Positions 8,491 through 49,964 of a stretch of 50,063 bases of DNA are shown here, piece by piece. The position numbers were made by a program, and so were the translations under genes. The DNA is from Bacteroidales bacterium (GTDB lineage: Bacteria; Bacteroidota; Bacteroidia; Bacteroidales; Marinilabiliaceae): the NCBI GenBank assembly GCA_017539645.1, contig JAFYCM010000011.1, positions 1 through 50,063 of the forward strand, given 5' to 3'. Below the pieces are notes generated by a model. It had not been told where the DNA came from. It searched no databases and worked only from the letters and a program-made list of their open reading frames with translations. Position 1 is the stretch's first letter. Each line of letters begins with the position of its first letter.

Positions 8491-8526
8491 GATTCAGGTT
8501 CGGTGTCGGGTCTTTTTTTATGCATA

Positions 8527-8534: not shown

Positions 8535-8587
8535 GTATCGATTAACAGAGTGAAAAAAGCAGAGTGTACTTTATATAGTTTGTGACT

Positions 8588-8595
8588 TAGCTTTG
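8588..8595 (+). promoter_or_regulatory. Candidate -7 element for the beta-barrel gene
   Basis: TAGCTTTG matches the TAnnTTTG consensus 41 bases before the ATG at 8637. Together with the element on the other strand it makes 8491-8636 a divergent promoter region. Confidence 0.45.
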
Positions 8596-8636
8596 CACCG
8601 AAAAATATTGATATAAGACAAAACCTTTTTGAAGAG

Positions 8637-9299: not shown

Positions 9300-9305
9300 A
9301 TAAAT

Positions 9306-10850
9306 ATGGCTACGATGAAGAACTATATATACACCATACTTACAGCGGCTATAGCACTGACATTCAACGCTTGCCGCGATACTGCCGACGACGTTATTTC
9401 TTACGGGCAGAACGATTACTTGAATTTTGCTGCAGCCGAAGAGAGCTACGAGGCACAATTCAAAGCTCTCTGGACGGCACTCAACTGCAACTACGCCATT
9501 TGGGACTACGAAGAGGAGCAAGGCCTCGATTGGGACGCGGTGTACAAGCAATATAAGTCCAAGATGGCCTCTTTCGATAGTCGGCTCGAACGCAACAAGG
9601 AGGTTAGCGACGACGAGTTTCAGCGTATTTATGAGAGCATCCTCAACAAGCTGCATGATGGCCATATATACATACAGATAAAAAACTTATATACAGGCAA
9701 TTACTTAGATTTCAGTCCGTCGGACACTCGCAACTCCGACCGCAACGACTATTACTACGTACGCCTGCCGCAGATGAGCTACTACCTCTCGAATCAAGCT
9801 GGCGAGAACGAAATTGTGGAATACGACACCGTGACCACTCGTCCAGCAGGATTTATGAAAAACGAGATTGCAAACGCTTTGAGCCAAATAGATAAGCAAA
9901 TCTCCAAGCTCGAGCACAAAAATTCGCGCACCGATTTGGACGACTATTTTCTGAATAATTACAAGGCCGCAAAACAAGAGTTGGAGAGATTCAACCCAAA
10001 TAGTTACAGCGCCGCGGACTACTACAACAACGAGCTAAGAGACATATGCAAAAAGCTCGACATTGACTTGAATGTCTACGACATAGAGAGCAGCGACTAC
10101 CTCGACGTGCGTTTGGCACTCTTCCGCGATGGCATTGTATACTTCCAGCTGTCGGACTTCGGGCTCTACCCTTTCATCAATGGCATCGTTGGTGGCTCAT
10201 ACTGCTCCGATTCGCTTAGCAACCGCGTGTTCGACGTAATAGATAATTGGGTAAACACCGTGCAAGAGTTGCACTACAATCGTCAGCTCAAGGGCGTAAT
10301 TATAGATGTGCGCAACAATGGCGGCGGCTACAGCGACGATTATCAATACGTACTTGGCTCGTTGCTGCGCGAAGGTGGTCACAAGTTTGGATACCACCGC
10401 ATAAAAACTGGCATTGGTCGCTACGACTACTCACCACTCACGCCCGACGTCATGCCTACGCTCGATGCTGGTCAGGAGGCTATCTCGGAGCCTATTGTGG
10501 TGTTGGCAAACTGCAACTCGGTAAGTATGTCAGAGCAGACGTGTCTCGGCGCAAAAGATCTGAGCAATGCTCGCGTTATTGGCACGCCTACTTGGGGCGC
10601 ATATAGCCCGCTCTACGACGATCCTATTTACTATTCACTTACATACGCCAGCGTCGTTGGCATACAAGACGAAACTCCATTCTATGCATACATACCTTGC
10701 TCAGCCTACTTCAATAGCGACAAGGAGATTTGCGAAGGCGTGGGCGTAACTCCCGACATAAAAATAGATTTGGACGAGAAACTTCTCCGCCGAAATGGTC
10801 GCGACAACCAACTTGAGCGCGCATTGCAATACATACGTACTGGCAAGTAG
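9306..10850 (+). CDS. S41 (tail-specific/tricorn-like) peptidase lipoprotein
   Basis: A 514-aa protein. A lipoprotein signal ends at the lipobox TFNAC; the ATG at 9315 would give a more standard signal peptide (MKNYIYTILTAAIALTF) than the ATG at 9306 used here. The N-terminal helical bundle includes AIWDYEEEQGLDWDAVYKQY, typical of S41 proteins. The catalytic core begins around LKGVIIDVRNNGGGYSDDY and contains NCNSVSMSEQ, where S407 aligns with the nucleophile, then VIGTPTWG. GVGVTPDIKID near the end is the usual S41 tail. A separate PDZ domain is not obvious. It probably acts in the periplasm or on the outer membrane. A terminator follows. Confidence 0.9.
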   Translation: MATMKNYIYTILTAAIALTFNACRDTADDVISYGQNDYLNFAAAEESYEAQFKALWTALNCNYAIWDYEEEQGLDWDAVYKQYKSKMASFDSRLERNKEVSDDEFQRIYESILNKLHDGHIYIQIKNLYTGNYLDFSPSDTRNSDRNDYYYVRLPQMSYYLSNQAGENEIVEYDTVTTRPAGFMKNEIANALSQIDKQISKLEHKNSRTDLDDYFLNNYKAAKQELERFNPNSYSAADYYNNELRDICKKLDIDLNVYDIESSDYLDVRLALFRDGIVYFQLSDFGLYPFINGIVGGSYCSDSLSNRVFDVIDNWVNTVQELHYNRQLKGVIIDVRNNGGGYSDDYQYVLGSLLREGGHKFGYHRIKTGIGRYDYSPLTPDVMPTLDAGQEAISEPIVVLANCNSVSMSEQTCLGAKDLSNARVIGTPTWGAYSPLYDDPIYYSLTYASVVGIQDETPFYAYIPCSAYFNSDKEICEGVGVTPDIKIDLDEKLLRRNGRDNQLERALQYIRTGK

Positions 10851-10879
10851 AACATTTGCTATACATAGCCACACAAAAT

Positions 10880-10920
10880 AGGCAGGAACTCCGTTACAGA
10901 GCGCCTGCCTTTTCTGTTTT
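10880..10920 (+). terminator. Rho-independent terminator after the S41 gene
   Basis: AGGCAGG at 10880-10886 pairs with CCTGCCT at 10904-10910, followed by TTTTCTGTTTT. It lies 30 bases after the S41 stop codon. Confidence 0.85.
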
Positions 10921-10938
10921 TATATCCTATTGGAGTCT

Positions 10939-11016
10939 TATCAGTTGAGACCAATCTTCATCACATCGCGCTCAAAATCGTCGCGGTTGCCTGCGGCTTT
11001 GTTTTTGATGCGAGCA
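10939..11016 (-). pseudogene. 3' remnant of a DUF6377 paralogue
   Basis: These 78 bases match 16391-16468, the 3' end of the intact DUF6377 gene, with only three differences. In the DUF6377 frame all three are synonymous (CTT/CTC Leu, GAC/GAT Asp, AAT/AAC Asn), and the TGA stop is kept. This is what a remnant of a once-functional paralogue would look like. The rest of the gene is absent. Confidence 0.8.
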
Positions 11017-11260
11017 TATTACGAGAATACCACAGAGGAGCACGACAATCGACCGTCAATGTGCACCCATCGATAATGAAATTATCGTTGTGCCAAAATG
11101 GGTAACGACCTTCGAAACGGCAATTGTAAGCTTCAACATCGGCACACTCTTTCAGAGCCGACTCGCCAGTGTGAATAGTTACACCACGCAAAACGACGTC
11201 TTTACTACCGAAGAGTGGACGCTCGCCGCTAAATTCTTTGTTTTCTATTGTTGTTTTCAT
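11017..11260 (-). pseudogene. Truncated DUF3737 gene (N-terminal part only)
   Basis: ATG at 11258-11260 starts MKTTIENKEFSGERPLFG, the family's N-terminus, and continues with RYPFWHNDNFIIDGCTLTVD and APLWYSRN, a right-handed beta-helix-like pattern. DUF3737 proteins are normally near 280 aa, but here the family match stops after about 81 residues and runs into the tail of a DUF6377 gene in a different frame, ending at a stop at 10961. It starts 10 bases after the MFS efflux gene, so it may still be transcribed as the last cistron. It is probably non-functional. Confidence 0.75.
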
Positions 11261-11269
11261 GCAGCAAAG

Positions 11270-12886
11270 CTACGCCTTTTTTTCTTGTCGCGCCATTCGT
11301 TTGAGCATTCGCTTCCCGACATCGTTCCACGACTGCATTCGCTTGAACCCTCTACGAAGTGGCAACTTATAGAGCAACAGTAGCATACCCACAGAAAGAC
11401 ATACATAAGCCACTATACCATAAAGTTGCTTAATACTTACAAGCATGACGGTATGGCTAAAACTATCCATCTTGAAAGCAAATGGTATGTTCTCAACACT
11501 CATAGAAATATGGTCGAAGCACTGCGAAAAGCGGCTAATATTATCAGCAATAAAATAATTAAGCCCATAAGAATAAAAAGCAGCGCCAACAACTCCACCA
11601 ATAACCATGTGAATCATATTGAATATAGATAGCGCCATAAAAAAGGTCTGGAAAGTAAATATGTCATGCAAAAGTGTCATCAAAGCTATAGACATGATGG
11701 CAGCAGCCATACTACGCAACATAAGAGGCAATCGCAACGACTCGATATTCAGCGCGGATGATATGATATTGTAAAATATAATTAGGTAAGCAGCCAAAGC
11801 AAAAAAGGCAATGGTTACAAGTCGCAACTTGCTGAAGTCGCAAACCTTCATCCATAACAATGCAAATAGGCAGCCAATAACCACGCCCATAAAAGACCAC
11901 CAATCGAGCCGAGCCGCAACGTGATCGGTATATTCCAAGCCATGCTCATAAAACACCTCTTCGAGCACATGCTCGGAAGCGAAGCATATTTCTGCAATGG
12001 TGATGATACATAGAATAGGCAAGAAATGTTTTACGCGCCAAATCTGCGGATCGATATATGGTTGCTTGAGCCACAACATACGCACCACTATGAGAACAGA
12101 AGTTGCAATAGCAGCAATGCCTACAGTTCGCATAGATGCAGAGTGGAGCCAATCGAGAGTTTGACCATAGCAAAAAAAGAAAGCCCACTGCAATAGGAAA
12201 GCCAGCCATAGCAACGCGCTTATCCAATCGATGCCTTTAAGCGGCACTGGAGGCATAATATAGACAGCCTTCGTAATGATAATTAGCACAATAGCTATCG
12301 TCATATATATGCCAGACATGAGCCAATGCATATTTTCCCAAGCCGAGGTATAGGCTATTTGAGCAGCCAAATAATCGCTCACTTGCATTGCACCTAAAAT
12401 AAATATGTGCAACAAAGGGAAGAAGACGCGGAAATCACGCTTAGGAGTCATCCATAATTGGATGTTGCTCATGCATTCGAATGTTCCTTGTATTTTGCAA
12501 AATCCGCTTATTATGCAGAACAGCCACAACATAGGCAAGTTGGGCGCATAGGCAGCACCAATATTCGACACAATCAGACCTACAGAAGCCCCAAGTAGCA
12601 ATACTTTATTGGGAAAATGGAACTTCATTCTGAAAAGCAGAGGAAAATAGACTGCCATTCCAGCCAAATTGCAATAGAGACACATAAGAACATCTTCGAG
12701 CAAAAACTGACGAGTACTTATTATCTCATTGATAGCACCCAGATATAAGCCGCCTCCAAGTTGAAAGCAGAAGGCAAACACTACATATATCCACGGGCGC
12801 AGAGGCTTGGGCACAAAATCGCGCATCATAGGCATGGCAAAGACCATTGGAGGGCCAGCATGAGTCTGCATTTTTTGCTGTTCCAT
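11270..12886 (-). CDS. MFS drug-efflux permease (EmrB/DHA2-like)
   Basis: A 538-aa integral inner-membrane protein with about 14 hydrophobic segments, starting with IYVVFAFCFQLGGGLYLGAI and ending near LYGIVAYVCLSVGMLLLLYKL, then a basic tail. The length and helix number fit the DHA2 class that works with an HlyD-type adaptor. It is the third gene of a tolC-hlyD-MFS operon (23 bases after the adaptor gene), forming a tripartite pump that exports drugs, bile compounds or fatty acids across both membranes. The classical EmrB motif C is not clearly readable, so the substrate class is inferred from context. Confidence 0.85.
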   Translation of the reverse strand: MEQQKMQTHAGPPMVFAMPMMRDFVPKPLRPWIYVVFAFCFQLGGGLYLGAINEIISTRQFLLEDVLMCLYCNLAGMAVYFPLLFRMKFHFPNKVLLLGASVGLIVSNIGAAYAPNLPMLWLFCIISGFCKIQGTFECMSNIQLWMTPKRDFRVFFPLLHIFILGAMQVSDYLAAQIAYTSAWENMHWLMSGIYMTIAIVLIIITKAVYIMPPVPLKGIDWISALLWLAFLLQWAFFFCYGQTLDWLHSASMRTVGIAAIATSVLIVVRMLWLKQPYIDPQIWRVKHFLPILCIITIAEICFASEHVLEEVFYEHGLEYTDHVAARLDWWSFMGVVIGCLFALLWMKVCDFSKLRLVTIAFFALAAYLIIFYNIISSALNIESLRLPLMLRSMAAAIMSIALMTLLHDIFTFQTFFMALSIFNMIHMVIGGVVGAAFYSYGLNYFIADNISRFSQCFDHISMSVENIPFAFKMDSFSHTVMLVSIKQLYGIVAYVCLSVGMLLLLYKLPLRRGFKRMQSWNDVGKRMLKRMARQEKKA

Positions 12887-12909
12887 TATTATTTGCTCTC
12901 CTATGTATA

Positions 12910-13932
12910 TTAATACTTCACCTCACATTCAACGTTGAGTCCCGCACGCAAGAGACTGTTTTTATCACTATCGTCAAGCATGATCTTTACAGGAATGCGT
13001 TGCTCTACCTTCACGAAATTGCCAGTGGCATTATCTTGCGGAATAACAGAATAGGCGGCACCAGTAGCACGAGAAATAGCCACCACATGTCCGGTGTAGA
13101 CAACATCGGGAACAGCATCTGCCTTTATTTCTACTTCGGCACCCACTGCGATATTTGACAATTGAGTCTCGCGATAATTGGCAATAATCCATGCTTCGCC
13201 ATCGGCAACAATGTCAACTATAGTCTGCCCGGGTTGAATAAGTTGTCCCTCTTGAATATCCTTACGACCCGTAGTACCATCGCACGGAGCAACAATCACG
13301 GTATACGACAAATTGAGTTGCGCCAAATTGAGTTGCGCAGCCGCCACTTGAATAGCAGCATCGTTCTGTCCAAGACGAACAGTCTGTTCTTGCTTTATGA
13401 GTGCAGTAGAATTTTTCTGACGCATAAGTTGCTCGTAGCGAGCCTTGGTAGCATTGTAGTCCGTCTCTACCCTATCGTATTGCTGCTGAGTGGCAGCACC
13501 ACGTTTCACAAGTTCAGCATATCTATTAAGCTCCGTCTCGGCATTTTTCAAACGAATAGCCACTTCTTCTATTCCAGCATCGGTAACTGCGATATTGTTT
13601 TCGGTGGTCGAGATGGTCGTATTCATTGCCGTTTTTCCCGTCGTGGCATTCATAAAATCGGCCTTTGCTTGAGCCAAACGGAGACGGAACTCGGCATCTT
13701 CAATAATGAGAAGAGTGTCACCTTTTTTTACTTGTGCATATTCTGAAAAGCGAACCTCTTTCACAAAACCTTGCACTCGCGAGTTTACTGGCGTCACAAG
13801 TTGACGAACCTGAGCATTGTCGGTATATTCTACATTTCCAAGGTGAATAAAACGTGAGCATACCATACACACGCCACCAACAAGCATCAATACGACAACT
13901 ACGTTAAATATAATTTTAGCAGAAATTTTCAT
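12910..13932 (-). CDS. HlyD/EmrA-family periplasmic adaptor
   Basis: A 340-aa membrane-fusion protein. One N-terminal membrane anchor (IIFNVVVVLMLVGGVCMVCS) is followed by a biotinyl-lipoyl half (VNSRVQGFVKEVRFSEYAQV), a long coiled-coil hairpin at about 80-200 (rich in A, E, K, Q; VKRGAATQQQYDRVETDYN), the second lipoyl half (VIVAPCDGTTGRKDIQEGQL) and a beta-barrel domain (VPVKIMLDD-type ending, here IPVKIMLDDSDKNS). It bridges the MFS permease and the TolC channel encoded on either side. Confidence 0.92.
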   Translation of the reverse strand: MKISAKIIFNVVVVLMLVGGVCMVCSRFIHLGNVEYTDNAQVRQLVTPVNSRVQGFVKEVRFSEYAQVKKGDTLLIIEDAEFRLRLAQAKADFMNATTGKTAMNTTISTTENNIAVTDAGIEEVAIRLKNAETELNRYAELVKRGAATQQQYDRVETDYNATKARYEQLMRQKNSTALIKQEQTVRLGQNDAAIQVAAAQLNLAQLNLSYTVIVAPCDGTTGRKDIQEGQLIQPGQTIVDIVADGEAWIIANYRETQLSNIAVGAEVEIKADAVPDVVYTGHVVAISRATGAAYSVIPQDNATGNFVKVEQRIPVKIMLDDSDKNSLLRAGLNVECEVKY

Positions 13933-13969
13933 GATTATTACTTATATATATCTATAAATCAACATATTA

Positions 13970-15289
13970 CTACAACAAACCAACTGCTGCAAGAAGCAAA
14001 CAATGGCTATAAACAATCGACATTTGGGAATTAATAAGCATCAATTCGGCCGATAGTTGCTGATTCGATGCATCGAGCATATCGGTGACCAATGCCATAC
14101 CATTCAGATAGCGATACTGAATGACATCGTAGTTTTCGTGAGCAAGTTGAAGGCTTTTTTCGCGCGTCCTACGAATCGACAAGGCCTCTTGATACTTAAC
14201 ATATGCAGCATGCACTTTAGCTCGCATATCGTTTTGAAGAGCCTCATATTGCGTACGAGCTGTAGCAGTGGCGGTGTGGAGTTTGCTAACCGCGTGTTTT
14301 TGTTTGTATATAGCACCAAGATTATAACTAACACCTACGCCAACATACCAATAATTAACATTTTTATCGATAGTGGGAATTTCAAACGTGATAGGCCCAT
14401 TCAAGTTATCCTCAGCACGAAGCACTATAGTGGGTCGATAAGCAGCTTTTGCAATCTCTTCGCTTTTGGTATTTATGTCGACTATCGACTCTGAGATGCG
14501 CACGGCAGGAGAGACGTCCACTTTTTGCAACCATTCCGACTCGTTGGCAACCGACTCTTGAAGGTTGATAATATTAGTATCGGGCTCAATAACAGTAGAA
14601 TGAGGCAAATCGAGAGCTGCCACAAGGTTGCTATTAGTTATATCGAATGCATTATGAGCCTGAGTCAAACGGAGGTCGAGATCTTGAAGTTGCATTTCGT
14701 AGCGAGTGATGTCGCTCTTCAGAGCCGTACCAGCCTCATAATTAGCCTCAATGTCGTCTACGAGTTTTTGCGTTTGCTCTTTATTCTTCTGAAGAATAAG
14801 TATCTGGTTACGCAGTTGGCAAAGGTCGAGATAATAGCCAGCCACAAGTAGTCGGACCGCCTGACGATTACCTTCGTAACGAAGCTTAGCAATAGTAGTT
14901 TTCAGTTCACTCAACTCAATCGACTTCTTTATTGCACCGCCAGCAAACAACACTTGAGTGACAGCCACCGAAAATGTGTTTCCCAAATGTGGTGTGGAGG
15001 TGTTGAAGCCATTCGAGAAATCACGGTCCATAATACGGACATCGCCCAAATAAGAGAGTTGCAAATTGAAATCGATGTCGGGAGTTCGATTGCTCTTAGC
15101 TGAACTAACTCCCTCTTCGGCCTCTACTATTTCGCTTCTTGAGGCTGCAAGAGACAGACTCTGTTCGTCGGCAAGCTGAAAAACTTCGTCCATCGACAAT
15201 CGTTTCGTTTGTGCTATGGCATTACTTATGCTAACAGTAGCAATAATTAGTAATGCACTAAATTTCAAATACTTACAATTAATATACAT
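13970..15289 (-). CDS. TolC-family outer-membrane efflux channel
   Basis: A 439-aa protein with a signal peptide (LLIIATVSISNAIAQ), then two OEP repeats of long helices separated by beta strands. The first starts LSMDEVFQLADEQSLSLAAS; the second includes RPTIVLRAEDNL and WYVGVGVSYNLG, the usual barrel strand. It is the first gene of the efflux operon, 37 bases before the adaptor gene, and provides the outer-membrane exit duct. The divergent AraC gene is the likely local regulator. Confidence 0.92.
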   Translation of the reverse strand: MYINCKYLKFSALLIIATVSISNAIAQTKRLSMDEVFQLADEQSLSLAASRSEIVEAEEGVSSAKSNRTPDIDFNLQLSYLGDVRIMDRDFSNGFNTSTPHLGNTFSVAVTQVLFAGGAIKKSIELSELKTTIAKLRYEGNRQAVRLLVAGYYLDLCQLRNQILILQKNKEQTQKLVDDIEANYEAGTALKSDITRYEMQLQDLDLRLTQAHNAFDITNSNLVAALDLPHSTVIEPDTNIINLQESVANESEWLQKVDVSPAVRISESIVDINTKSEEIAKAAYRPTIVLRAEDNLNGPITFEIPTIDKNVNYWYVGVGVSYNLGAIYKQKHAVSKLHTATATARTQYEALQNDMRAKVHAAYVKYQEALSIRRTREKSLQLAHENYDVIQYRYLNGMALVTDMLDASNQQLSAELMLINSQMSIVYSHCLLLAAVGLL

Positions 15290-15308
15290 ATCCTATTTTT
15301 TCGCAGAG

Positions 15309-15337
15309 CAAAACTACGCTCATAAGACATGCTACAA
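15309..15337 (-). promoter_or_regulatory. Promoter of the tolC-hlyD-MFS efflux operon
   Basis: On the minus strand TAGTTTTG (15309-15316) matches TAnnTTTG, with TTG (15335-15337) 18 bases upstream as the -33 element. It lies about 20 bases before the TolC ATG, in the divergent gap shared with the AraC gene. Confidence 0.6.
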
Positions 15338-15439
15338 TTGTTCAAACCAACACGATATTTGTCAAATTCGAACCAAAATCATACGTACTATCTATATTTG
15401 CGCAAAAAGATTTGTCCATATACAAATAATATTAATTCT

Positions 15440-16345
15440 ATGATTAAGAATAGTATACACGTATTTTCGATTCCCGACATAGAGCGCTCGCACCGAGGAA
15501 TGACCTACGGAGATCTTCTTTCGATATACCATAGCCAGCCAAACGAGAGCTTTCGCGCAGGAATAAATGGACAAACGGCATTCTACCTAAAAGCCTATAG
15601 CTACATGCTTGTGCTCAATGGCAGTGCCGAAATGAACATTGCACAACACAGCTACAATGTGTCATCTGGTAATTTGATTGTGTGCACTCCACTTCATTTG
15701 ATTAAGTATGTGTCTACTTCGCGCGATTTTGAATTCTTCGTCATGTCTATTTCGACGCAAATGGTTGACCAATTGCCACTCATCGATCTTCGCAGTAGAA
15801 TAACAAGTGGGCTCGACACGGGACGTCACCCAGTGAGCAAACTTAAGCCTCACGAAGTGGGCACTATTCTTCGCGCCTTCAACGACCTCTATACACAAAC
15901 CTCTCGGCGCGACCATATATATTGGAAAGAGTTAATAGAAAATGCTTTGTGCAGATTCTTTTTAGAATACGACAGTCTGAAAACCAACAACATGCCACCA
16001 AGCGAAAACCGAAGCAAACGGGCATCATCGATTTTCGACCAATTTATCCATTTAGCACAGCTACATTTCGTTGCGCATCACGATGTGTCGTTCTATAGCA
16101 ATGCTCTCAACATTACGCCTCAATATCTCACCCGAATAACCAACCAACAAGCAAGTATCAAACCTTCGGATTTCATCTCGGAGCTTCTATATGCCGAAGC
16201 GCGCAACCACCTTGCCACCTCATCGGCTACAATACAAAAGATAGCCAACGACCTTGGCTTTTCCGACCAAGCGGCGTTTTGCAAATTCTTTCGCCGCCGC
16301 TCTGGTATGTCGCCTAAAGAGTTTAGAATGAGCTACAAGCTATGA
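15440..16345 (+). CDS. AraC-family transcriptional regulator, divergent from the efflux operon
   Basis: A 301-aa regulator starting at ATG 15440 (MIKNSIHVFSIPDIERSH); the frame is open further upstream, but that part overlaps the promoter region and is not family-like. The N-terminal cupin-like ligand domain (INGQTAFYLKAYSYMLVLNG) is followed by two helix-turn-helix motifs at the C-terminus, at about 225-298: NALNITPQYLTRITNQQ, then TIQKIANDLGFSDQAAFCKF and the family signature FRRRSGMSPKEFR. Divergent placement makes it the likely regulator of the adjacent tripartite pump. The effector is unknown. Confidence 0.92.
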   Translation: MIKNSIHVFSIPDIERSHRGMTYGDLLSIYHSQPNESFRAGINGQTAFYLKAYSYMLVLNGSAEMNIAQHSYNVSSGNLIVCTPLHLIKYVSTSRDFEFFVMSISTQMVDQLPLIDLRSRITSGLDTGRHPVSKLKPHEVGTILRAFNDLYTQTSRRDHIYWKELIENALCRFFLEYDSLKTNNMPPSENRSKRASSIFDQFIHLAQLHFVAHHDVSFYSNALNITPQYLTRITNQQASIKPSDFISELLYAEARNHLATSSATIQKIANDLGFSDQAAFCKFFRRRSGMSPKEFRMSYKL

Positions 16346-16392
16346 AGCGTGCCTTGAGCAATTGCTCTCCACATTCACCATTGATAGGGCTA

Positions 16393-18036
16393 TCAGTTAA
16401 GACCAATCTTCATCACATCGCGCTCAAAGTCGTCGCGATTGCCTGCGGCTTTGTTTTTGATGCGAGCACGATAGGCATAGATAGAATTGGGTGAATAGTG
16501 CAAAAATTCGGCAATCTTGGAGCTTTCGGTAATACCTAAGCGCACAAGTGCAAAAATTCGCAAATCGGTAGAGAGACTATTTTCTGGCGGAACCAAGCGT
16601 TCTTCTGGACGCAGAAGGGCGTTGAAGTCGTCGACGAAAGTTGGGAATATATGTAGAAATACCTCATCGAAGTGATGGAAGAGTTCTTCGAGTTCGTCGC
16701 TCTTCATCTGTTCCGAATCGGTCATGCGCAAAAGTTCCTTGTATTGCCCGGCTTTTAGTTTTCGGTTCATCTTGATGCGGTAGTTGTCGAGTTTGTCTAT
16801 ATACTCAGAACAGATACTGAAGAATGAGCCGAGATATTCGTCCTTGACACGGTTGAGCTCGTTTTGTTGCATCATCGATTGGTGCAAATGTTCGTTCATA
16901 ACCGAGAGTTTGCTATTAGCCTCTGAAAGTTGCTGATTAACAAGCTGCAACTGGCTACGCGAATAGGATAGCTGACGGCGTTTTTTCAGCACGTAGAACA
17001 ACAGAAGCAGAAGCACTACTGCAAGTATGCTAATAGCAGCAATAGTATACGTCTGTCGTCTGTTGGCATCCTGCAAGCTCTGCTTATATTGGTTATTTAT
17101 ATTTATAACGATGGGCGCCACAAGCCACGAGCGCATGTGGGTGCTGAATTGCGACAAGCATTTCCACGAGAAGTCCACATAATGAAAGGCTCGGTCGGCC
17201 TCATCGGTGGTGAGAGTTTGAGCAAGCGACCAAAGAGCTCCCTGGTCCATTATGGCGAGCCGAATATCTACCAAGGCAGCCTGAGCCAACCAATAGCGAT
17301 ACATATTCATCTGATCTTGTTCACCATAAATCAAAGCACGAAAATAGGCCATTGTAGCCCAATCGCGGCTACCAGGTTCGCAATGTTGTTCCCAGAAATT
17401 GCAACATTTGAAGGCTTCGTCGAATCGGCCTTCATTTATCTGCATAACAGTCATTTCGTGAATCCACGTGAGCGACAAACTGTCGGGATAAGCCAAAAGA
17501 GAATCGCGCATTGCAGCTGCATAGTCCGAAAACTCGTTTCTGAATTTAGGCTCGTGCGTATAGTAGCTCATCTCGCCATAGAGTCGACCAAGGCAATAAT
17601 AGTATTTATGCTTCATCTCATCGCTGAGAGTCTCGGTCTTTAGCTTGTTGTAATGTATGTATGCCTCGTGATAGAAACCCGATTCGGTAAGCTGGTCGGC
17701 AAGCGCCATAAGGCTTTGCTGGTAAAAATCTCTATTGCCCATTTTCTGCGAAATGTCGAGACATATATATTGGTATGCTATCGCCGAATCGTTGTTGAAT
17801 GGTTGGTACTCTTCATAAATACTTTTGGACCAAGCGAAGCGCTCTTCAAGGCTCTCAGTCTTTTGCAGGCGAACCTTTAGAAGATTTATGCGTTCGGTTT
17901 TTCGCTGTAAGTATATATGCGACGAATCTATTGCGAGATCTATAGCACGGTAGAGAGAGTCGAGTTGTTGGGGAGTTATGCACAATACATGAGTAGTTAA
18001 TGATATGAGTATTAGAAGTAAAGAGCCTTTTTTCAT
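16393..18036 (-). CDS. DUF6377 membrane-tethered transcriptional regulator
   Basis: A 547-aa protein with a signal peptide (MKKGSLLLILISLTTHVLC), a helical TPR-like periplasmic part at about 20-325 (ESLEERFAWSKSIYEEYQPF, AYIHYNKLKTETLSDE), one membrane helix at about 328-350 (AVVLLLLLFYVLKKRR), a cytoplasmic coiled coil at about 355-395, and a C-terminal DUF6377 region ending in a LuxR-like helix-turn-helix at about 492-528 (RLGITESSKIAEFLHYSPNS). This architecture would let an outside signal reach a DNA-binding domain without a phosphorelay. It is divergent from the SusC gene of the beta-glucan locus and is the best candidate for its regulator. A decayed paralogue tail lies at 10939. Confidence 0.85.
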   Translation of the reverse strand: MKKGSLLLILISLTTHVLCITPQQLDSLYRAIDLAIDSSHIYLQRKTERINLLKVRLQKTESLEERFAWSKSIYEEYQPFNNDSAIAYQYICLDISQKMGNRDFYQQSLMALADQLTESGFYHEAYIHYNKLKTETLSDEMKHKYYYCLGRLYGEMSYYTHEPKFRNEFSDYAAAMRDSLLAYPDSLSLTWIHEMTVMQINEGRFDEAFKCCNFWEQHCEPGSRDWATMAYFRALIYGEQDQMNMYRYWLAQAALVDIRLAIMDQGALWSLAQTLTTDEADRAFHYVDFSWKCLSQFSTHMRSWLVAPIVININNQYKQSLQDANRRQTYTIAAISILAVVLLLLLFYVLKKRRQLSYSRSQLQLVNQQLSEANSKLSVMNEHLHQSMMQQNELNRVKDEYLGSFFSICSEYIDKLDNYRIKMNRKLKAGQYKELLRMTDSEQMKSDELEELFHHFDEVFLHIFPTFVDDFNALLRPEERLVPPENSLSTDLRIFALVRLGITESSKIAEFLHYSPNSIYAYRARIKNKAAGNRDDFERDVMKIGLN

Positions 18037-41810: not shown

Positions 41811-41864
41811 GAGCATATTTATAAACAAATGCTAATTTCATTCGCAAAAAAAACAAAAATCTCT

Positions 41865-44800
41865 ATGAAAAAGATTCTCGGTCTCGACCTTGGCACAAAC
41901 AGCATCGGCTGGGCTGTGGTGAATGCGGAAGTGGTAACCCGCAACAATGAAACCTCATTCTTGAAGCCAGCAAGCATTAGTGCCGCTGGTAGTAGAATTA
42001 TACCGATGGACGAAGGTATCCTCGGCGATTTCGACAAAGGAAATACGAAATCGCAAACAAAAGATAGAACCGACAAACGTGGTGCACGTAGGTTGTTAGA
42101 ACGCTATCTTCTGCGTCGTGAGCGACTTTTGCGTGTGCTGAAACTGATGAAGTTTTTGCCAGAACATTTCGCTTCTCACATAAATGAATACGGCAAATTT
42201 ATTGATAAGAGTGAGCCTAAATTGGCATGGAGAAAGGGTATTGATGGCAAATCTGAGTTCATCTTCAAAGACTCTTTCAGCGAGATGCTTGCCGATTTCG
42301 CAAAGAATCAGCCGCAACTTGTTGCCAATGGGAAGAAAGTGCCGTACGATTGGACTATCTACTATCTGCGTAAGAAGGCTTTGTCGCAAAGGTTGACAAA
42401 GGAAGAACTCGCATGGATTCTGCTCCAATTCAATCAGAAGCGCGGCTATTACCAACTTCGTGGCGAGGAAGAGGAGGAAGCACAAGATAAGAAGGTAGAA
42501 TTTCTTGCTCAAAAAGTTATGCGCGTTGAGGCAACTGATGAGAAAAAGGGCGATGATGTTTGGTATAACGTCTATCTCGAAAATGGAATGGTTTACCGAC
42601 GTTCGAGTCGCATTCCGTTGGATTGGGAAGGAAAAACCAAAGAGTTTATTGTTACAACGGACCTTGAAAAAGACGGGACACCAAAGAAAGACAAAGATGG
42701 CAACATCAAACGTTCGTTCCGTGCACCGAAGGAGGACGATTGGACATTGCTCAAAAAGAAAACGGAGTATGATATAGACAATAGCAACAAGACTGTTGGC
42801 TGCTACATCTACGATGCCTTACTACAGAATCCTAATCAGAAGATTGTTGGCAAACTCGTGCGCACAGTAGAGCGTAAATATTACAAAGACGAACTTCGTC
42901 AAATCCTTGATATTCAGAGAGCCTTGATGCCGGAACTTCAAGACGAAAATCTTTACAAGGCTTGCATCGAAGAACTCTATCCAAATAATGAGGCGCATCG
43001 CAACATTATTGCAAAACCAGATTTTGCCAATTTATTCATCAATGACATTTTATTCTATCAGCGACCACTAAAGAGCAAAAAGGCGTTGATTAGCGATTGT
43101 CCATATGAGTCGCATTTCGATAAAGATGGCAACGCACATCCGATAAAGTGCATCGCGAAATCGAATCCACTATTCCAGGAATTCCGTTTGTGGCAGTTCG
43201 TACAGAATCTTCGTATCTATCAGCGAGAGAAGGAAGAAAACGGAAGGCTCATAACCGATGCTGACGTAACCAACGAGTTTTTGAAAACGGAAGATGATTA
43301 TGTCACACTCTTCGATTGGCTTAATGATAGGGCATCAATAAAGCAAGATACTCTGCTCAACTCTTATTTCAAGTTCAAAAAAGAGAAAGGTAAAGACCAA
43401 TATCCATATCGCTGGAACTACGTTGAGGATAAGGAATACCCGTGTAACGAAACTCGTGCCGAGATTCTGAAAGGATTGGGCAAATGTGGCGTTACTGCCG
43501 ATTTCTTGACTAAAGAACGAGAAATGCAGCTTTGGCATATTCTTTATTCGGTTGAGGATAAGTTAGAGATTGGCAAAGCTCTGAAGAAGTATGCCGAGAA
43601 GAGTAATTTGCCTGAATCTTTCGCAGAAGTCTTTGCCAAAATCAAGCCGTTCAAAAAAGAGTACGGCTCATATTCTGAGAAGGCTATCAAAAAATTGCTC
43701 CCGCTTATGCGTATGGGCAAATATTGGAATGCAGATGCCATCGATGCCAATACCAAAGATCGCATCAGCAAGATTATCACTGGCGAGTATGATGAAGACA
43801 TCAAAAACCGCGTTCGCGAGAAGGCGATAAATTTGATCGATGAGAACCATTTTAGAGGCTTGCCAATCTGGTTTGCTTGTTACATTGTGTACGACCGACA
43901 TTCAGAAGCCAAAGAGGTTGAAAAATGGGAGAAGCCAGAGGATATTGATAAATATCTAACAGCGTTCAAGCAACATTCTTTGCGAAATCCGATTGTGGAG
44001 CAGGTTGTTACTGAAACACTTCGTACTGTGCGCGACATCTGGAAGCAGGAGGGCAATATCGACGAAATTCACGTAGAACTCGGTCGCGAAATGAAGAATC
44101 CTGCCGACAAACGCAAAAAGATGACTGAAACTATTCAGCAGAACGAGAATACAAATTTACGCATCAAAGCAATGCTTATGGAGTTTATGAATCCTGAAAT
44201 GGGTATTGAGAACGTGCGTCCGTATTCACCAAGTCAGCAGGATATTTTGCGTATTTACGAAGAGAATGCTCTCGATAACCTTTCTAAAGACGACCCCGAT
44301 TTTGAGTTTGTCAGTAAGGTTTCGAAGTTGGCTCAACCATCAAAATCTGATATAATAAAGTACAAATGCTGGTTGGAGCAGAAATATCGTTCGCCATATA
44401 CTGGCGAGATGATTCCGCTTGCCAAACTTTTTACTTCTTCATACGAGATTGAGCATGTGATTCCGCAGTCGCGCTACTTCGACGACTCGTTCAGCAACAA
44501 GGTCATTTGCGAAGCCGAAGTGAATAAGTTGAAAGATCGTCAACTTGGCTTTGAATTCATAAAGATCCATAAGGGCGAAAAAGTTCAGCTTAGCCAAGGC
44601 AAAACGGTTGAGATTCTTTCTGTCGAGGCATACGAAAAGTTCGTGAAAGACCATTATAGCAGCAATCGCACAAAGATGAAAAAGTTGCTGATGGAAGATA
44701 TTCCAGATGGATTTATTGAGCGTCAACTGAACGATAGCCGATATATCAGCAAGTTTGTAAAAGGGTTGCTGTCGAACATCGTGCGCGAGAAATTGCCAAA

Positions 44801-46649
44801 TGGCGAGTATGAACAGGAGGCTGTTTCCAAGAATCTGATTTCGTGCAATGGTTCAATAACCGACCGATTGAAAAAAGATTGGGGCATGAACGACGTGTGG
44901 AACAGCATTATCTTGCCACGTTTCAAGAGGCTGAATAAATTAACGAATAAAATAACCGACATAGAGCTTGTAAATGAGTTCAAGCGACTGTTTGAATTAG
45001 AACTCCAGAACATTGCGCAATCGAAAGGCATAATAAAGGTTGATTCATATCCAGATTTCTATAAATCATTGGATAATAAAGAACGTGTGAAAGTTATAGA
45101 CAATGTGATGAAACAATTACCAATAGCAGAGTCATTTTTGTCAGTCAATAATGAAGGACACGTTATCCCTAATATGCCGCTCGAGCTTCAAAAAGGTTTC
45201 AACAAGAAGCGCATTGACCATCGTCATCACGCTATGGATGCTATTGTGATAGCTTGCGCCACACGCGACCATGTGAATTTGTTGAATAATGAAGCTGCAC
45301 ATTCTAAAAAACATGACAAATCTTATCGATTTGACTTGCAAAGCAAGCTTCGCAGAAAAGATGAAGAAGGATATTATAAAGAGTTCTTGAAACCGTGGAA
45401 TTCGTTCACCACCGACGCAAAGCAGGCTTTGGAAAACATTATTGTCAGCTTCAAGCAGAACTTGCGCGTAATTAACAAGACAACAAACTATTTTGAATCT
45501 TACAAAGACGAAAACGGAAATCTAAGGATAGGGAGAAATGGAAAGCCTGAAAAGAAACCGATAAAGCAAGATAAAGGCGACAGCTGGGCAATACGCAAAT
45601 CGATGCACAAAGATACTGGTTGGGGCGAAGTGAATTTGCGAAAGACAAAAGATGTGTCGTTGAACGATGCGCTGAAAAATCCGAAGGCGATTGTAAACAA
45701 AGAGTTCAAACATAAAGTGCAAGAGTTGCTTGCACAAGGCCACGATGCCAAATACATAAAGAAATATGTTGAGGACAATAAAGATATTTGGTCGGAGATT
45801 AACACTTCAAAAATTGAAGTTTATTACTTCACAAAAGAGACTAACGACCGCTATTTTGCAACACGCTTCCTTAGCGATTTGGTTGGCTATATGTCTGGAA
45901 TAAAGGAATATGACAAGGCTATTGCAAAAATAGAAGGAATAACGGATACAGGTATTCAGAAGATACTAAAAGCACATTTACAGGCAAAAGAGAACAATCC
46001 AGAACTTGCGTTCTCGGCTGATGGTATTGATGAAATGAACCGCAACATTGTAGAATTGAACGGAGGCAAGCCTCATAAGCCTATATACAAGGTGCGCCGT
46101 TACGAAAGTGGCAATAAATATTCTATTGGTCAGATAGGTTGCAAAGCAAAGAAGTTCTTTGAAGCCGACAAGGGCACAAACCTTTTCTTCGCCATCTTCA
46201 GTTCTGAAAAATTGAACAAGGAGTCTGGTGAGATGGAGAGCGTACGTTCGTATCTTACAATTCCGCTCAACGTGATGATTGATTGTCAAAAGAAATTCGG
46301 TTCGAAGTGGCAAGCTAATATTGAAACATATCTGAAAGAATGTAAGTTGGTTTCTGATGAGGTTAAACTGCTGTTCATTCTTTCGCCAAATGATTTGGTA
46401 TATTTGCCTACGAAAGATGAGTTGAAAGATGGAATAAAGGAGGTTGACAAGAAGAGGATTTATAAAATGGTGAGTTGTACTGGTAACGAAGGACATTTTG
46501 CCCCAGCAAAAATTTCCAATCCAATTTTGCAGACGACTGAATTAGGAAGTAATAATAAAGCGCAACGTGCATGGACTGGCGAAATGATCAAGGAAATATG
46601 CATCCCTTTGAAAGTCGACCGATTAGGCAATATTATAGGAATTGACTAA
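41865..46649 (+). CDS. cas9: Cas9 endonuclease, type II-C (large form)
   Basis: A 1594-aa RNA-guided nuclease from ATG 41865 (MKKILGLDLGTNSIGWAV); the frame opens 12 codons earlier at 41829, but those residues precede the conserved start. Catalytic residues: RuvC-I D8; Arg-rich bridge helix about 72-95 (RGARRLLERYLLRRERLLRV); RuvC-II E738 in IHVELGREM; HNH H864 in YEIEHVIPQSRYFDDS with N887; RuvC-III H1122 and D1125 in DHRHHAMDAIVIA. All are intact, so it should cut both strands. Glu replaces Asp before the HNH His, which I believe is common in this branch. It is much longer than the N. meningitidis type II-C protein (1082 aa). The absence of csn2 and cas4 and the cas9-cas1-cas2 order support subtype II-C. 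Confidence 0.97.
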   Translation: MKKILGLDLGTNSIGWAVVNAEVVTRNNETSFLKPASISAAGSRIIPMDEGILGDFDKGNTKSQTKDRTDKRGARRLLERYLLRRERLLRVLKLMKFLPEHFASHINEYGKFIDKSEPKLAWRKGIDGKSEFIFKDSFSEMLADFAKNQPQLVANGKKVPYDWTIYYLRKKALSQRLTKEELAWILLQFNQKRGYYQLRGEEEEEAQDKKVEFLAQKVMRVEATDEKKGDDVWYNVYLENGMVYRRSSRIPLDWEGKTKEFIVTTDLEKDGTPKKDKDGNIKRSFRAPKEDDWTLLKKKTEYDIDNSNKTVGCYIYDALLQNPNQKIVGKLVRTVERKYYKDELRQILDIQRALMPELQDENLYKACIEELYPNNEAHRNIIAKPDFANLFINDILFYQRPLKSKKALISDCPYESHFDKDGNAHPIKCIAKSNPLFQEFRLWQFVQNLRIYQREKEENGRLITDADVTNEFLKTEDDYVTLFDWLNDRASIKQDTLLNSYFKFKKEKGKDQYPYRWNYVEDKEYPCNETRAEILKGLGKCGVTADFLTKEREMQLWHILYSVEDKLEIGKALKKYAEKSNLPESFAEVFAKIKPFKKEYGSYSEKAIKKLLPLMRMGKYWNADAIDANTKDRISKIITGEYDEDIKNRVREKAINLIDENHFRGLPIWFACYIVYDRHSEAKEVEKWEKPEDIDKYLTAFKQHSLRNPIVEQVVTETLRTVRDIWKQEGNIDEIHVELGREMKNPADKRKKMTETIQQNENTNLRIKAMLMEFMNPEMGIENVRPYSPSQQDILRIYEENALDNLSKDDPDFEFVSKVSKLAQPSKSDIIKYKCWLEQKYRSPYTGEMIPLAKLFTSSYEIEHVIPQSRYFDDSFSNKVICEAEVNKLKDRQLGFEFIKIHKGEKVQLSQGKTVEILSVEAYEKFVKDHYSSNRTKMKKLLMEDIPDGFIERQLNDSRYISKFVKGLLSNIVREKLPNGEYEQEAVSKNLISCNGSITDRLKKDWGMNDVWNSIILPRFKRLNKLTNKITDIELVNEFKRLFELELQNIAQSKGIIKVDSYPDFYKSLDNKERVKVIDNVMKQLPIAESFLSVNNEGHVIPNMPLELQKGFNKKRIDHRHHAMDAIVIACATRDHVNLLNNEAAHSKKHDKSYRFDLQSKLRRKDEEGYYKEFLKPWNSFTTDAKQALENIIVSFKQNLRVINKTTNYFESYKDENGNLRIGRNGKPEKKPIKQDKGDSWAIRKSMHKDTGWGEVNLRKTKDVSLNDALKNPKAIVNKEFKHKVQELLAQGHDAKYIKKYVEDNKDIWSEINTSKIEVYYFTKETNDRYFATRFLSDLVGYMSGIKEYDKAIAKIEGITDTGIQKILKAHLQAKENNPELAFSADGIDEMNRNIVELNGGKPHKPIYKVRRYESGNKYSIGQIGCKAKKFFEADKGTNLFFAIFSSEKLNKESGEMESVRSYLTIPLNVMIDCQKKFGSKWQANIETYLKECKLVSDEVKLLFILSPNDLVYLPTKDELKDGIKEVDKKRIYKMVSCTGNEGHFAPAKISNPILQTTELGSNNKAQRAWTGEMIKEICIPLKVDRLGNIIGID

Positions 46650-47995: not shown

Positions 47996-48011
47996 TACTC
48001 CATTAGAAAAC

Positions 48012-48041
48012 AAAAAAGCACCTTTTGAAAGGTGCTTTTTT
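48012..48041. terminator. Bidirectional terminator between cas2 and the CRISPR array
   Basis: GCACCTTT (48018-48025) pairs with AAAGGTGC (48028-48035), flanked by six A on the left and six T on the right. It can end the cas1-cas2 transcript (plus) and the crRNA precursor (minus), which converge here. Confidence 0.85.
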
Positions 48042-48113
48042 GCAGATCGGAACCAGATTTTTATTTACACAAGCATTGCAAACTGCTGATGTTGTGAACG
48101 TTATCGACATTCA

Positions 48114-48689
48114 GTTGTTTCCGATAGCGTAAAAATACAATTTGAAAGCAATTCACAACTAATAATCTTAGCCATAGTGATTTATTTGGTTGTTTCCGAT
48201 AGCGTAAAAATACAATTTGAAAGCAATTCACAACGAGTTCTTCTATACTCTGACAGTTGCTGAAGTTGTTTCCGATAGCGTAAAAATACAATTTGAAAGC
48301 AATTCACAACTCTCCATAACGTTTTGATTTTTTGATTGTGTTGTTTCCGATAGCGTAAAAATACAATTTGAAAGCAATTCACAACTCATATCCTCGAATA
48401 CCTGAGAGAAGTACTGTTGTTTCCGATAGCGTAAAAATACAATTTGAAAGCAATTCACAACTCACCCTCATAACCTCAGCTATGGCTTGGTGTTGTTTCC
48501 GATAGCGTAAAAATACAATTTGAAAGCAATTCACAACCGCAATGCGTACCACTGGCACACCAGAGCAGTTGTTTCCGATAGCGTAAAAATACAATTTGAA
48601 AGCAATTCACAACTACGTCCCCGATAGGTTCATGGAATGATGAGTTGTTTCCGATAGCGTAAAAATACAATTTGAAAGCAATTCACAAC
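48114..48689 (-). CRISPR. CRISPR array: eight 46-nt repeats, seven 29-30-nt spacers
   Basis: Repeats, identical in all copies, are at 48114, 48189, 48265, 48340, 48416, 48492, 48568 and 48644, each 46 nt; on the plus strand each starts GTTGTTTCCGATAGCG and ends GAAAGCAATTCACAAC. Spacers are 29, 30, 29, 30, 30, 30 and 30 nt. The tracrRNA anti-repeat pairs with the GTTGTGAATTGCTTTC end, so crRNAs are read from the minus strand, opposite to cas9-cas1-cas2, as in other type II-C loci. The predicted leader, and therefore the newest spacer (48614-48643), is on the right. I could not match any spacer to the window by eye. Confidence 0.98.
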
Positions 48690-48722
48690 CAATGTGGGAT
48701 GGGTAATATATAAGAAGTGAAT

Positions 48723-49388
48723 ATGACGCAGAGAAAACAAAAAACCGTCAACCCGAAGGCTAACGGTATATATAGTGAGTTAATTATCACTATTGAAAAA
48801 CTCCCGACCCATAAGCTAACCGCTTACAAACCACAAGGGGATTATGCGCCCTACAAAAATTGCCAAACGTCAAGTAACCTCGCACATTTGGGAAGCATCT
48901 CTGCAGACAAAGATACACAAAAATCAATTGGTAGATTAAGAAAACTATTAAAAGATTGGAATATCGACAATCCTCATACGTTTGCATTAATCGTATCAAA
49001 TAACATTAGTGCAGAGCCATCACAAGAGCGTGTTGTTTCTGCTGAAGACGCAGACGAGATAAGTTATTATCTCAATTTACCTGAATATTCACTTCGCATC
49101 GGCCTACACAATCTTAACACAGAAAATTACAAAGGCTCTCGCAATCGCCAAATGAATTATGGCGTAACATTCAAAGATTTTACAAAAAAAGACACATTTA
49201 GAGAAAAGAAAGGCGTAAAAGTCAAAGCGTATGTATATGTGTATTTTACACAAGAACGTCTTAAACTCATAGCTAAAGCAATATTATATCTACTCGAAAA
49301 TGGCGAATGGGACGATAGTATAGCTAAAGCCGATTATGAAAACCCATCATCTCTCGATGGCGAAATCTCAAACAGTTGTTTCCGATAG
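48723..49388 (+). CDS. Unrecognised 221-aa protein on the leader side of the CRISPR array
   Basis: ATG 48723 starts MTQRKQKTVNPKANGIYSEL (a GTG at 48717 would add two residues); AAGAAG a few bases upstream may serve as ribosome-binding site. I do not recognise the family. It has no signal peptide or membrane helix. Visible features: a basic N-terminus, a mixed alpha/beta middle, a stretch SLRIGLHNLNTENYKGSRNR, a lysine-rich segment around 158-170 (KKDTFREKKGVKVKAYVY) and an amphipathic helix ERLKLIAKAILYLLENGEW near the end. A+T-rich codon use fits a coding frame open for 666 bases but differs from the housekeeping genes. It runs convergently to the array. Its last codons (S-C-F-R-stop) are made by a CRISPR repeat fragment at 49375. 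It could be CRISPR-associated, a mobile-element or phage gene, or an anti-CRISPR; none is shown. Confidence 0.65.
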   Translation: MTQRKQKTVNPKANGIYSELIITIEKLPTHKLTAYKPQGDYAPYKNCQTSSNLAHLGSISADKDTQKSIGRLRKLLKDWNIDNPHTFALIVSNNISAEPSQERVVSAEDADEISYYLNLPEYSLRIGLHNLNTENYKGSRNRQMNYGVTFKDFTKKDTFREKKGVKVKAYVYVYFTQERLKLIAKAILYLLENGEWDDSIAKADYENPSSLDGEISNSCFR

Positions 49389-49394
49389 CGTAAA
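49375..49394. repeat. Orphan CRISPR repeat fragment
   Basis: GTTGTTTCCGATAGCGTAAA is identical to the first 20 bases (plus-strand sense) of the array repeat, in the same orientation, 685 bases to the right of the last array repeat. The rest of the repeat is unrecognisable. It forms the end of the 221-aa gene, including the TAG stop at 49386-49388. Confidence 0.9.
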
Positions 49395-49660
49395 GTATCA
49401 TTTTCATTGGTTGCGCGTAGATAACTGATAATCACACTAAAATTACTTGTTTCTAATGCAAAATTCTTATATTTACCATCGAGATGATTGGATAGCGAGG
49501 AGATTGATTTTACACAGCCCACTGCCGTATTATGAGCCTTTATGCGCTTGGCGTTCAAACCTCTCGGAAGTGATTGGTGGACATTCAACGTCTTTTCTAT
49601 CGAAATAATTATTTTCATATCATACAAGGTTTTATTCCCTCTCACCATTCATTGAGCGAG
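49395..49660. other. No convincing gene
   Basis: A minus-strand frame opens from 49648 (an internal ATG gives MKIIISIEKTLNVHQSL at about 49615) and runs through the orphan repeat to 49334. It has no recognisable domain, and its final part is antisense to the 221-aa gene. CCCTCTC near 49637 can pair with GAGAGGG near 49657 without a clear T-tract. This could be a gene remnant. Confidence 0.4.
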
Positions 49661-49731
49661 AGGGGGATTTCTTATTTACATATACGATGATCGCTGTTTT
49701 ACCTATTCAGGCTAATTTGCAATCTGTTTAG

Positions 49732-49829
49732 GCGGATTTCTAATCCGCTATTCCCTTAGCCTCGGATTACAAATTTCCTCAAGAAGGGTCTGTCGAAACC
49801 GCTGGCTGAGCTTGTCGAAGCCATGCGGT
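49732..49829. repeat. REP-like short hairpins
   Basis: GCGGATT (49732-49738) and AATCCGC (49742-49748) form a tight hairpin with a 3-base loop. A second imperfect hairpin, ACCGCTGGCT... AGCCATGCGGT, lies at 49798-49829. Nearby words such as GGATTACAAAT and GGTATTACAAATCC repeat the theme. They look like dispersed palindromic repeats; no transposase is present in the window. Confidence 0.6.
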
Positions 49830-49928
49830 TCTGTTCAGGCAGTTTTGCTATCCACTTTTTCATTTAGTTGGGTATTACAAATCCACTCCAACGGAAATCC
49901 GCATTATCCGAGCAAATAGCATACAAAC

Positions 49929-49964
49929 AAAAAATCCTCTCAAGCCATTCAGCTTAAGAGGATT
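49929..49964 (-). terminator. Terminator of the rRNA operon
   Basis: AATCCTCTCAAGC (49933-49945) and GCTTAAGAGGATT (49952-49964) pair with one mismatch; on the minus strand the stem is followed by six T. It lies just after the 3' end of the 5S rRNA gene. Confidence 0.88.

What the first reader, a model, noticed from the sequence alone, without database searches (positions are those of the whole stretch)
48690..49388. Unknown gene occupying the predicted leader side of a type II-C array
The tracrRNA anti-repeat fixes crRNA transcription on the minus strand, so the leader should lie right of 48689. Instead, a 221-aa ORF of no family I recognise starts 34 bases from the last repeat and runs convergently to the array. 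A gene at this position could use the leader region, influence adaptation, make RNA antisense to an array precursor, or be a cargo gene captured at a CRISPR repeat. Of all features in the window it is the one least explained by known systems.
Basis: partly seen in the sequence, partly recalled or inferred. Interest (0 to 1): 0.75.

Follow-up and report, generated by a model that had tools for sequence, protein, structure and literature searches.

The report
Phage gene piece hiding antisense RNA
The unknown gene beside this CRISPR array looks like a stray piece of a phage-type gene at the old end of the array, and its opposite strand carries a conserved, folded small RNA gene that matched no family in the RNA library searched.

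Summary
The 221-aa ORF is real and coding: outside the RNA overlap, changes at codon positions 1/2/3 against its closest relative are 38/31/84 over 147 codons. It is not on the leader side. II-C arrays are transcribed toward their leader (PMC8092290, passages), the conserved flank is the cas2 side, and the orphan half-repeat matches the degenerate terminal repeats of 7 of 8 relatives. The ORF thus fills the oldest interval of the array. Its protein is a ~200-aa module that also starts a 1011-aa methylase-like protein on a phage-like contig of the same genome.

The surprise is on the opposite strand: about 48902-48744 (minus) looks like a structured RNA gene with promoter, covarying fold and terminator, antisense to the ORF's first ~60 codons. 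Eleven copies were found in eight Bacteroidales genomes; 18 of 40 pairs change on both sides, 0/500 shuffles as high; no Rfam match. A different conserved block fills the same place in the phage-like copy. I favour antisense control of a phage-type gene. No expression data; structure prediction never ran; the window copy's own minimum-energy fold differs from the consensus.

The parts
47996..48113 (.). predicted leader (variable end) between cas2 and first repeat
   Evidence: conserved among 12 loci, mean score 17.8 against 10.6 shuffled
48114..48689 (-). II-C array, 8 identical 46-nt repeats, 7 spacers of 29-30 nt; crRNA sense on minus
   Evidence: strand inferred
48723..49388 (+). 221-aa ORF of the finding; stop codon inside the half-repeat
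48759..49361 (+). module shared with polyvalent proteins (profile A9)
48744..48902 (-). RNA A, structured RNA gene antisense to the ORF's 5' part (ends approximate)
   Evidence: model match 48789-48919 incl. promoter, 130.2 bits; covariation
48908..48915 (-). promoter -7 box TATCTTTG of RNA A
   Evidence: TAnnTTTG scan; consensus from PMC7366714, passages
48744..48767 (-). Rho-independent terminator of RNA A, 55 nt upstream of the array in crRNA sense
49375..49394 (.). degenerate terminal repeat (half kept)
   Evidence: crRNA-sense 3' half 20/22, 5' half 8/24 identical; relatives
49395..49648 (-). start of a second gene of the same kind, broken at the half-repeat
   Evidence: DNA match of 49587-49677 to C84:7719-7806, 76%, E 3.4e-9; protein match weak, 34% over 58 aa, E 0.005-0.05
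49468..49672 (+). RNA D, candidate only: promoter-like box and terminator-like hairpin antisense to the second gene start
   Evidence: by eye; fold not better than shuffles, z -1.1, 33/200 as stable

Best explanation
The ORF is a stranded fragment, the N-terminal module, of a Bacteroidales phage-type polyvalent gene that came to lie between the last intact repeat and the degenerate terminal repeat at the leader-distal end of a II-C array. Its 5' third overlaps, on the opposite strand, a small structured RNA gene (RNA A) with its own promoter and terminator. Shown by sequence: coding constraint on the ORF, homology of the module, a conserved covarying fold of RNA A, promoter and terminator motifs, and occurrence of RNA A with and without the ORF. 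Inferred: that RNA A is transcribed; that in the parent elements it holds down the polyvalent gene by pairing with the mRNA's start and first ~60 codons; and that its fold serves stability or a partner so that solitary copies can act in trans. At this locus its terminator may also shield the array from outside transcription.
For: ORF coding. A profile of three sequences found a fourth, C84:7768-8394 in the same genome (E 1.9e-59), at the start of a 1011-aa ORF with methyltransferase matches in PHROGs (none in Pfam), followed by a strawberry-notch-type helicase gene, on a contig with tail-fibre, endolysin and DNA methylase genes. G006 C129 has the module in an open frame of 809 aa with an N6-methylase domain, beside a MuF-C protein. 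RNA A: RNAalifold on eight minus-strand copies gives 40 pairs, 17 with compensatory changes, -42.3 kcal/mol; the plus strand (slightly different extent) gives 17 pairs, 5 compensatory, -19.7. The covariance model found three copies not used to build it, E 2.0e-23, 2.2e-20, 5.1e-19. 94.3% of cells pair, 18 of 40 pairs change on both sides, 0/500 shuffles as high on five measures, slid controls pair 36-50%. Terminator in 9 of 11 copies by a permissive finder. Third positions change less under RNA A (11/38 against 88/154, p 0.002) and in the block at the same place of C84/C129 (RNA C: 3/44 against 78/149, p 2e-8).
Against: No expression data. Seven of 11 RNA A copies have no homologous ORF opposite them, so cis-antisense control cannot be its only role. 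On the window copy the consensus structure has -24.0 kcal/mol against -39.1 for the minimum-energy fold, and consensus energies lie above the minimum in all 11 rows that could be scored; the window's minimum-energy fold keeps the P2/P3 and P6 hairpins but not P1. The strict terminator finder hit only 3 of 11, and for two copies 5-8 of 60 shuffles do as well as the permissive hit. The two G437 copies lack the promoter box and lie right behind genes. RNA C rests on two sequences, its block was outlined after seeing the alignment, and it folds only moderately better than shuffles (z -2.1, 7/200). The window protein has no match in 50,697 phage or 72,556 plasmid records nor in viral contigs, so the phage origin rests on contig C84 alone; the C84 protein itself was not searched there.
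Confidence: 0.6

Rival explanations
1. RNA A is an independent trans-acting or structural RNA of mobile islands. Its overlap with the ORF is an in-frame insertion of the RNA gene into the gene's N-terminal loop, without regulation of that gene.
For: Seven of 11 copies stand without the ORF; in UBA1754 and G061 the ORF stops early while the RNA is intact; C84 and C129 modules lack RNA A.
Against: C84 and C129 carry another constrained block at the same place, which an accidental insertion would not predict.
Confidence: 0.25
2. Only the terminator matters here: the insert was kept because a Rho-independent terminator upstream of the array, with a broken terminal repeat, prevents extraneous crRNA.
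For: Terminator 48767-48744 and terminal repeat with 8/24 of the tracr-pairing half; both are proposed II-C mechanisms (PMC12080349, abstract and passages).
Against: That paper reports no significant enrichment of terminators upstream of II-C arrays; RNA A has the same layout in genomes where no array is next to it.
Confidence: 0.08
3. CreTA-like CRISPR-regulated toxin RNA: the degenerate repeat makes a guide that holds down a small toxic RNA (RNA A).
For: Degenerate repeat and small RNA beside a Cas locus, the outward signs of CreTA (PMC9458426 and PMC8501985, search listing and start of abstract only).
Against: One half-repeat without the tracr-pairing half; the guide next to the first intact repeat has a seed run of 5 in the insert, reached by 175 of 200 shuffles; most RNA A copies lie away from CRISPR loci.
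Confidence: 0.02
4. Unknown gene that uses the leader or acts in adaptation.
For: Position next to the array.
Against: Wrong end of the array; found homologues are not next to arrays.
Confidence: 0.03

Closest known systems
Polyvalent proteins of phages and conjugative elements (Iyer et al. 2017, PMC5512222, passages read)
   Same: Relatives of the module start or sit inside large proteins with DNA methylase matches, next to helicase or MuF-C genes
   Different: In the window only the single module is left; the module matches no Pfam or NCBIfam family
DonS-type cis-antisense RNAs of Bacteroides (PMC7366714, passages read)
   Same: RNA on the opposite strand of a gene; the sigma-ABfr TAnnTTTG box
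   Different: DonS-type RNAs go with susC homologues; RNA A has a multi-helix covarying fold and solitary copies
Extraneous-crRNA suppression in II-C arrays (PMC12080349, abstract and passages read)
   Same: Mutated extra repeat and a Rho-independent terminator upstream of the array
   Different: Here the terminator belongs to an RNA gene that also occurs without an array
Degenerate terminal repeats of related II-C arrays
   Same: Seven of 8 relatives; in six of them the left part is kept, in L057 the whole repeat has diverged
   Different: In these seven it follows about 30 nt of spacer; here it follows 685 nt

Membership tests
CRISPR leader (adaptation side) | lies at the variable end and is conserved among related loci | tested here: not met
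   right flank 11.7 against 17.8 on the cas2 side, shuffled 10.6; terminal repeat on the right is degenerate
Polyvalent protein | two or more domains in one large polypeptide | tested here: not met
   window ORF is one module of 221 aa; relatives of 735-1011 aa meet it
Polyvalent protein | encoded by a phage or mobile element | tested here: inconclusive
   met for the C84 relative; not shown for the window fragment; no match in phage, plasmid or viral collections
Structured RNA gene | covariation beyond chance across diverged copies | tested here: met
   18 of 40 pairs with double changes, 0/500 shuffles (alignment fitted to the model); 17 of 40 on the unfitted alignment of 8
Structured RNA gene | is transcribed | not testable with these tools
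   promoter box at this place in 6 of 11 copies, terminator in 9 of 11 by the permissive finder
Known Rfam family | reaches a family threshold | tested here: not met
   window at gathering: only 5S; window stretch at E up to 5: E 1.2 and 2.7 only; G219 stretch: tmRNA nearby and one E 2 hit; six RNA A loci: one off-site hit, E 0.25; RUG13712 and RGIG9953 copies not scanned
cis-antisense RNA regulator | opposite strand over the target's 5' region | tested here: met
   RNA A 48902-48744 against the ORF from 48723
cis-antisense RNA regulator | found only with its target | tested here: not met
   homologous ORF opposite 4 of 11 copies, G061 weakly
cis-antisense RNA regulator | represses the target | not testable with these tools
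   needs expression
II-C extraneous-crRNA suppression | mutated extra repeat and upstream terminator | tested here: met
   tracr-pairing half 8/24 kept; terminator 48767-48744
CreTA | degenerate repeat unit whose guide matches a nearby toxin promoter | tested here: not met
   one half-repeat; no guide match beyond shuffles

The most novel reading that the evidence does not exclude
Antisense RNA cassettes of different sequence (A, C, perhaps D) occupy one fixed position of a phage-type polyvalent module, so that each effector gene carries its own RNA switch. Solitary RNA A copies, some beside defence loci (a Cas9 array, a Cas12a island, a type III methylase with a WYL regulator), would be host-captured copies that silence the matching gene of incoming phages: an RNA-based immunity kept in defence islands.
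Probability: 0.1. Interest if true: 0.9.

Novelty: new variant of a known kind. Interest (0 to 1): 0.6.

Why it matters
If right, a structured RNA family that matched nothing in Rfam 15 is woven antisense into genes of the kind phages use against their hosts, and at least one other RNA-like block fills the same slot. That makes RNA control of polyvalent proteins testable and gives a covariance model to search with. It also corrects how the ends of II-C arrays are read: the cas-distal flank is the old end, where stray DNA can lodge, not the leader.

Tried and rejected
Leader gene or adaptation factor: rejected. ORF without relatives: rejected once whole genomes were searched (2 of 71 family genomes incl. 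the own; 2 of 393 order genomes incl. the own), although genome contigs, viral contigs, plasmids and phages gave none. RNA on the plus strand: 5 of 17 pairs compensatory, weaker than minus. Riboswitch for the downstream gene: downstream genes are not consistently co-directional. RNA A pairing with the repeat or the tracr candidate: 19 to 187 of 200 shuffles as strong. Spacers (7, plus the two spacer-sized ends of the interval) against 119 fetched loci, 592,487 bases, own-array loci left out: best 8-10 mismatches, no target (the first listing, showed only the array itself). RNA A in viral contigs: two patterns gave none; a looser one gave 8 stretches, none an RNA A by the model at E up to 1. 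RNA C block in 286 order genomes: only its own (G006 gave no row, so it was not in that sample). RNA A in a phylum sample: 1 of 326, the window's own. PHROGs hits of the ORF at E 0.09-0.12 ignored. Profile against PDB sequences: one hit at E 1.

Limits: order and phylum searches drew samples; RNA searches over more than 40 genomes use stricter filters. Of 20 fetched cas1 loci, 11 of the same repeat class went into the leader test with the window; 7 of another class (L062-L068) and 2 without an array (L055, L061) were left out. For the window, the right flank in that test is the insert itself.

Full report
What is there. The right end of the window holds cas9 (41829-46649), cas1, cas2, eight 46-nt repeats (48114-48689), the ORF of the finding (48723-49388, plus) and an exact 20-nt half-repeat (49375-49394), then a flank that ends in a 5S rRNA gene. 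The ORF matches nothing in Pfam or NCBIfam at E up to 10. Its closest relative lies in G006, another genus of the family: 68% identity over residues 16-213, inside a 472-aa ORF. Outside the RNA overlap, codon positions 1/2/3 differ 38/31/84 over 147 codons, so the frame has been under protein selection.

Which side is the leader. In type II-C it runs the other way, from promoters inside repeats toward the variable end (PMC8092290, passages). The data agree. The 150 nt on the cas2 side are alike among 12 loci (mean local score 17.8 over 66 pairs; shuffled 10.6, largest 16.0); the right flank is not (11.7 over 36 pairs). In 7 of 8 relatives whose array end lies on the contig a degenerate repeat follows the last near-perfect one: in six its left part is kept, in L057 the whole repeat has diverged; L058 has none. 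The half-repeat at 49375 fits this: it keeps 20/22 of the crRNA-sense 3' half and 8/24 of the tracr-pairing 5' half. The ORF thus fills the last interval, 685 nt where spacers have 29-30 nt. Its first 30 nt (48690-48719) and last 30 nt (49345-49374) are spacer-sized, which would fit an insert of about 625 bp in place of a repeat; this is conjecture.

What the protein is. A profile of the module (window, G006 C91, G006 C129) found a further copy in the same genome, C84:7768-8394, E 1.9e-59, at the start of a 1011-aa ORF with methyltransferase matches in PHROGs but none in Pfam, followed by a strawberry-notch-type helicase; the contig also carries tail-fibre, M15 endolysin and DNA methylase genes. 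G006 C129 has the module inside an open frame of 809 aa with an N6-methylase domain, beside a MuF-C protein, and a second, partial copy. Methylase-helicase pairs and MuF-C are themes of polyvalent proteins (PMC5512222, passages). The profile matched 2 of 71 family genomes. Right of the half-repeat, on the minus strand, the window carries what looks like the start of another such gene: 49587-49677 matches C84:7719-7806 at 76% DNA identity, E 3.4e-9, and the predicted proteins agree over 58 residues, weakly (34%, E 0.005-0.05). Two gene starts of this kind would thus converge on the terminal half-repeat. The parent element of the window fragments was not found, so phage origin is inferred from C84.

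The RNA. A DNA block inside the ORF's 5' part recurs in other Bacteroidales where no such ORF exists. On the minus strand it shows a promoter box TATCTTTG at 48915-48908, a conserved core, and a terminator at 48767-48744. RNAalifold on eight copies gives 40 pairs, 17 with compensatory changes, at -42.3 kcal/mol; the plus strand, in a slightly different extent, gives 17 pairs, 5 compensatory, at -19.7. The window RNA with its terminator folds 4.45 s.d. below shuffles, 0 of 200 as stable. A covariance model then found three copies that were not in it: two in G437 and one in G061 of the window's own genus. On 12 matches (11 distinct rows) 94.3% of cells pair, 18 of 40 pairs change on both sides, and 0 of 500 shuffles reach any of five measures; slid structures pair 36-50%. 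Against this: on the window copy the consensus structure has -24.0 kcal/mol and the minimum-energy fold -39.1; in the 11 rows that could be scored the consensus is always above the minimum. The window's minimum-energy fold keeps the P2/P3 and P6 hairpins but not P1. I give covariation more weight than single-sequence energy, but the outer helix needs probing.

Occurrence. Eleven copies in eight genomes: window, G006, UBA1754, RUG13712 (G253), RGIG9953, G219 (three), G437 (two), G061. Rates: 4 of 393 order genomes, 3 of 71 family genomes, 1 of 326 phylum genomes, each counting the window's own (samples overlap). The exact TAnnTTTG box sits at this place in 6 of 11; the three G219 copies have one about 50 nt further up; the two G437 copies have none. 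A terminator follows in 9 of 11 by a permissive finder (none for G219c and G437b), though for RUG13712 and RGIG9953 8 and 5 of 60 shuffles do as well; a strict finder gave 3 of 11. Rfam 15 has no match to the copies scanned.

RNA and gene together. A homologous ORF lies opposite RNA A in 4 of 11 copies: window, G006, UBA1754 (E 1e-25 to the window ORF) and, weakly, G061 (E 0.027 to the window, 0.002 to G006). In UBA1754 and G061 that homology stops early while the RNA is intact. Under RNA A third positions differ less than in the rest of the gene (11/38 against 88/154, p 0.002). In the other branch of the module (C84 against C129), a different block fills the same place with third-position changes of 3/44 against 78/149, p 2e-8; I outlined it after seeing the alignment. 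I call it RNA C; it has promoter-like and terminator-like ends by eye, but folds only moderately better than shuffles. RNA D in the window's right flank is not supported by folding. Recurrence at one position argues for control of the gene; solitary copies argue for more than that.

Mechanism. Most likely RNA A, made from its own promoter, pairs with the mRNA of the polyvalent gene over its start and first ~60 codons and holds it down in the parent element; the conserved fold suggests a partner or a trans role. At this locus the terminator and the broken terminal repeat are two of the ways by which II-C systems are thought to avoid extraneous crRNA (PMC12080349, abstract and passages), though that paper finds no significant enrichment of such terminators. 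None of this is shown by experiment.

Print. Four searches (listings and starts of abstracts) showed no paper that describes such an RNA; other sources were not searched. Several of the copies come from rumen assemblies by their record names (RUG13712 and the yak-reticulum RGIG9953; 'RUG' as rumen is recalled).

Noticed in passing
L111 (G061 C4) 7700-16600: A Cas12a gene (11064-15071) and a V-A array (15810-16440) share a segment with an RNA A copy (8065-8198); an 81-nt direct repeat at 89% flanks it (7717-7797 and 16509-16589), as if an island.
   Followed up: partly
L052, L054, L056, array ends: The terminal II-C repeat is interrupted by an extra stretch of roughly 15-30 nt; in L054 and L056 it contains GCGGAAATCGG(T/C)GGAGCC.
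   Followed up: no
L071 8977-9028 and 9458-9509; L096 about 85-181; L100 about 8102-8239: A second conserved repeat that may be another small RNA gene (ACACGAGCCGAGGTTTAGTGG...CTACGGCGTTTG) lies next to RNA A in three genomes.
   Followed up: no
L100 8338-9850: Three tandem RNA A copies lie downstream of a tmRNA gene (10256-10600, minus), a usual integration site (recalled).
   Followed up: partly
L110 4140-4271 and 8858-8988: RNA A copies directly behind 600-aa and 445-aa genes without Pfam match, beside a type III methylase and a WYL protein.
   Followed up: partly
window 49700-49960: Short stretches found many times in this genome and in G055, before the rRNA operon.
   Followed up: no
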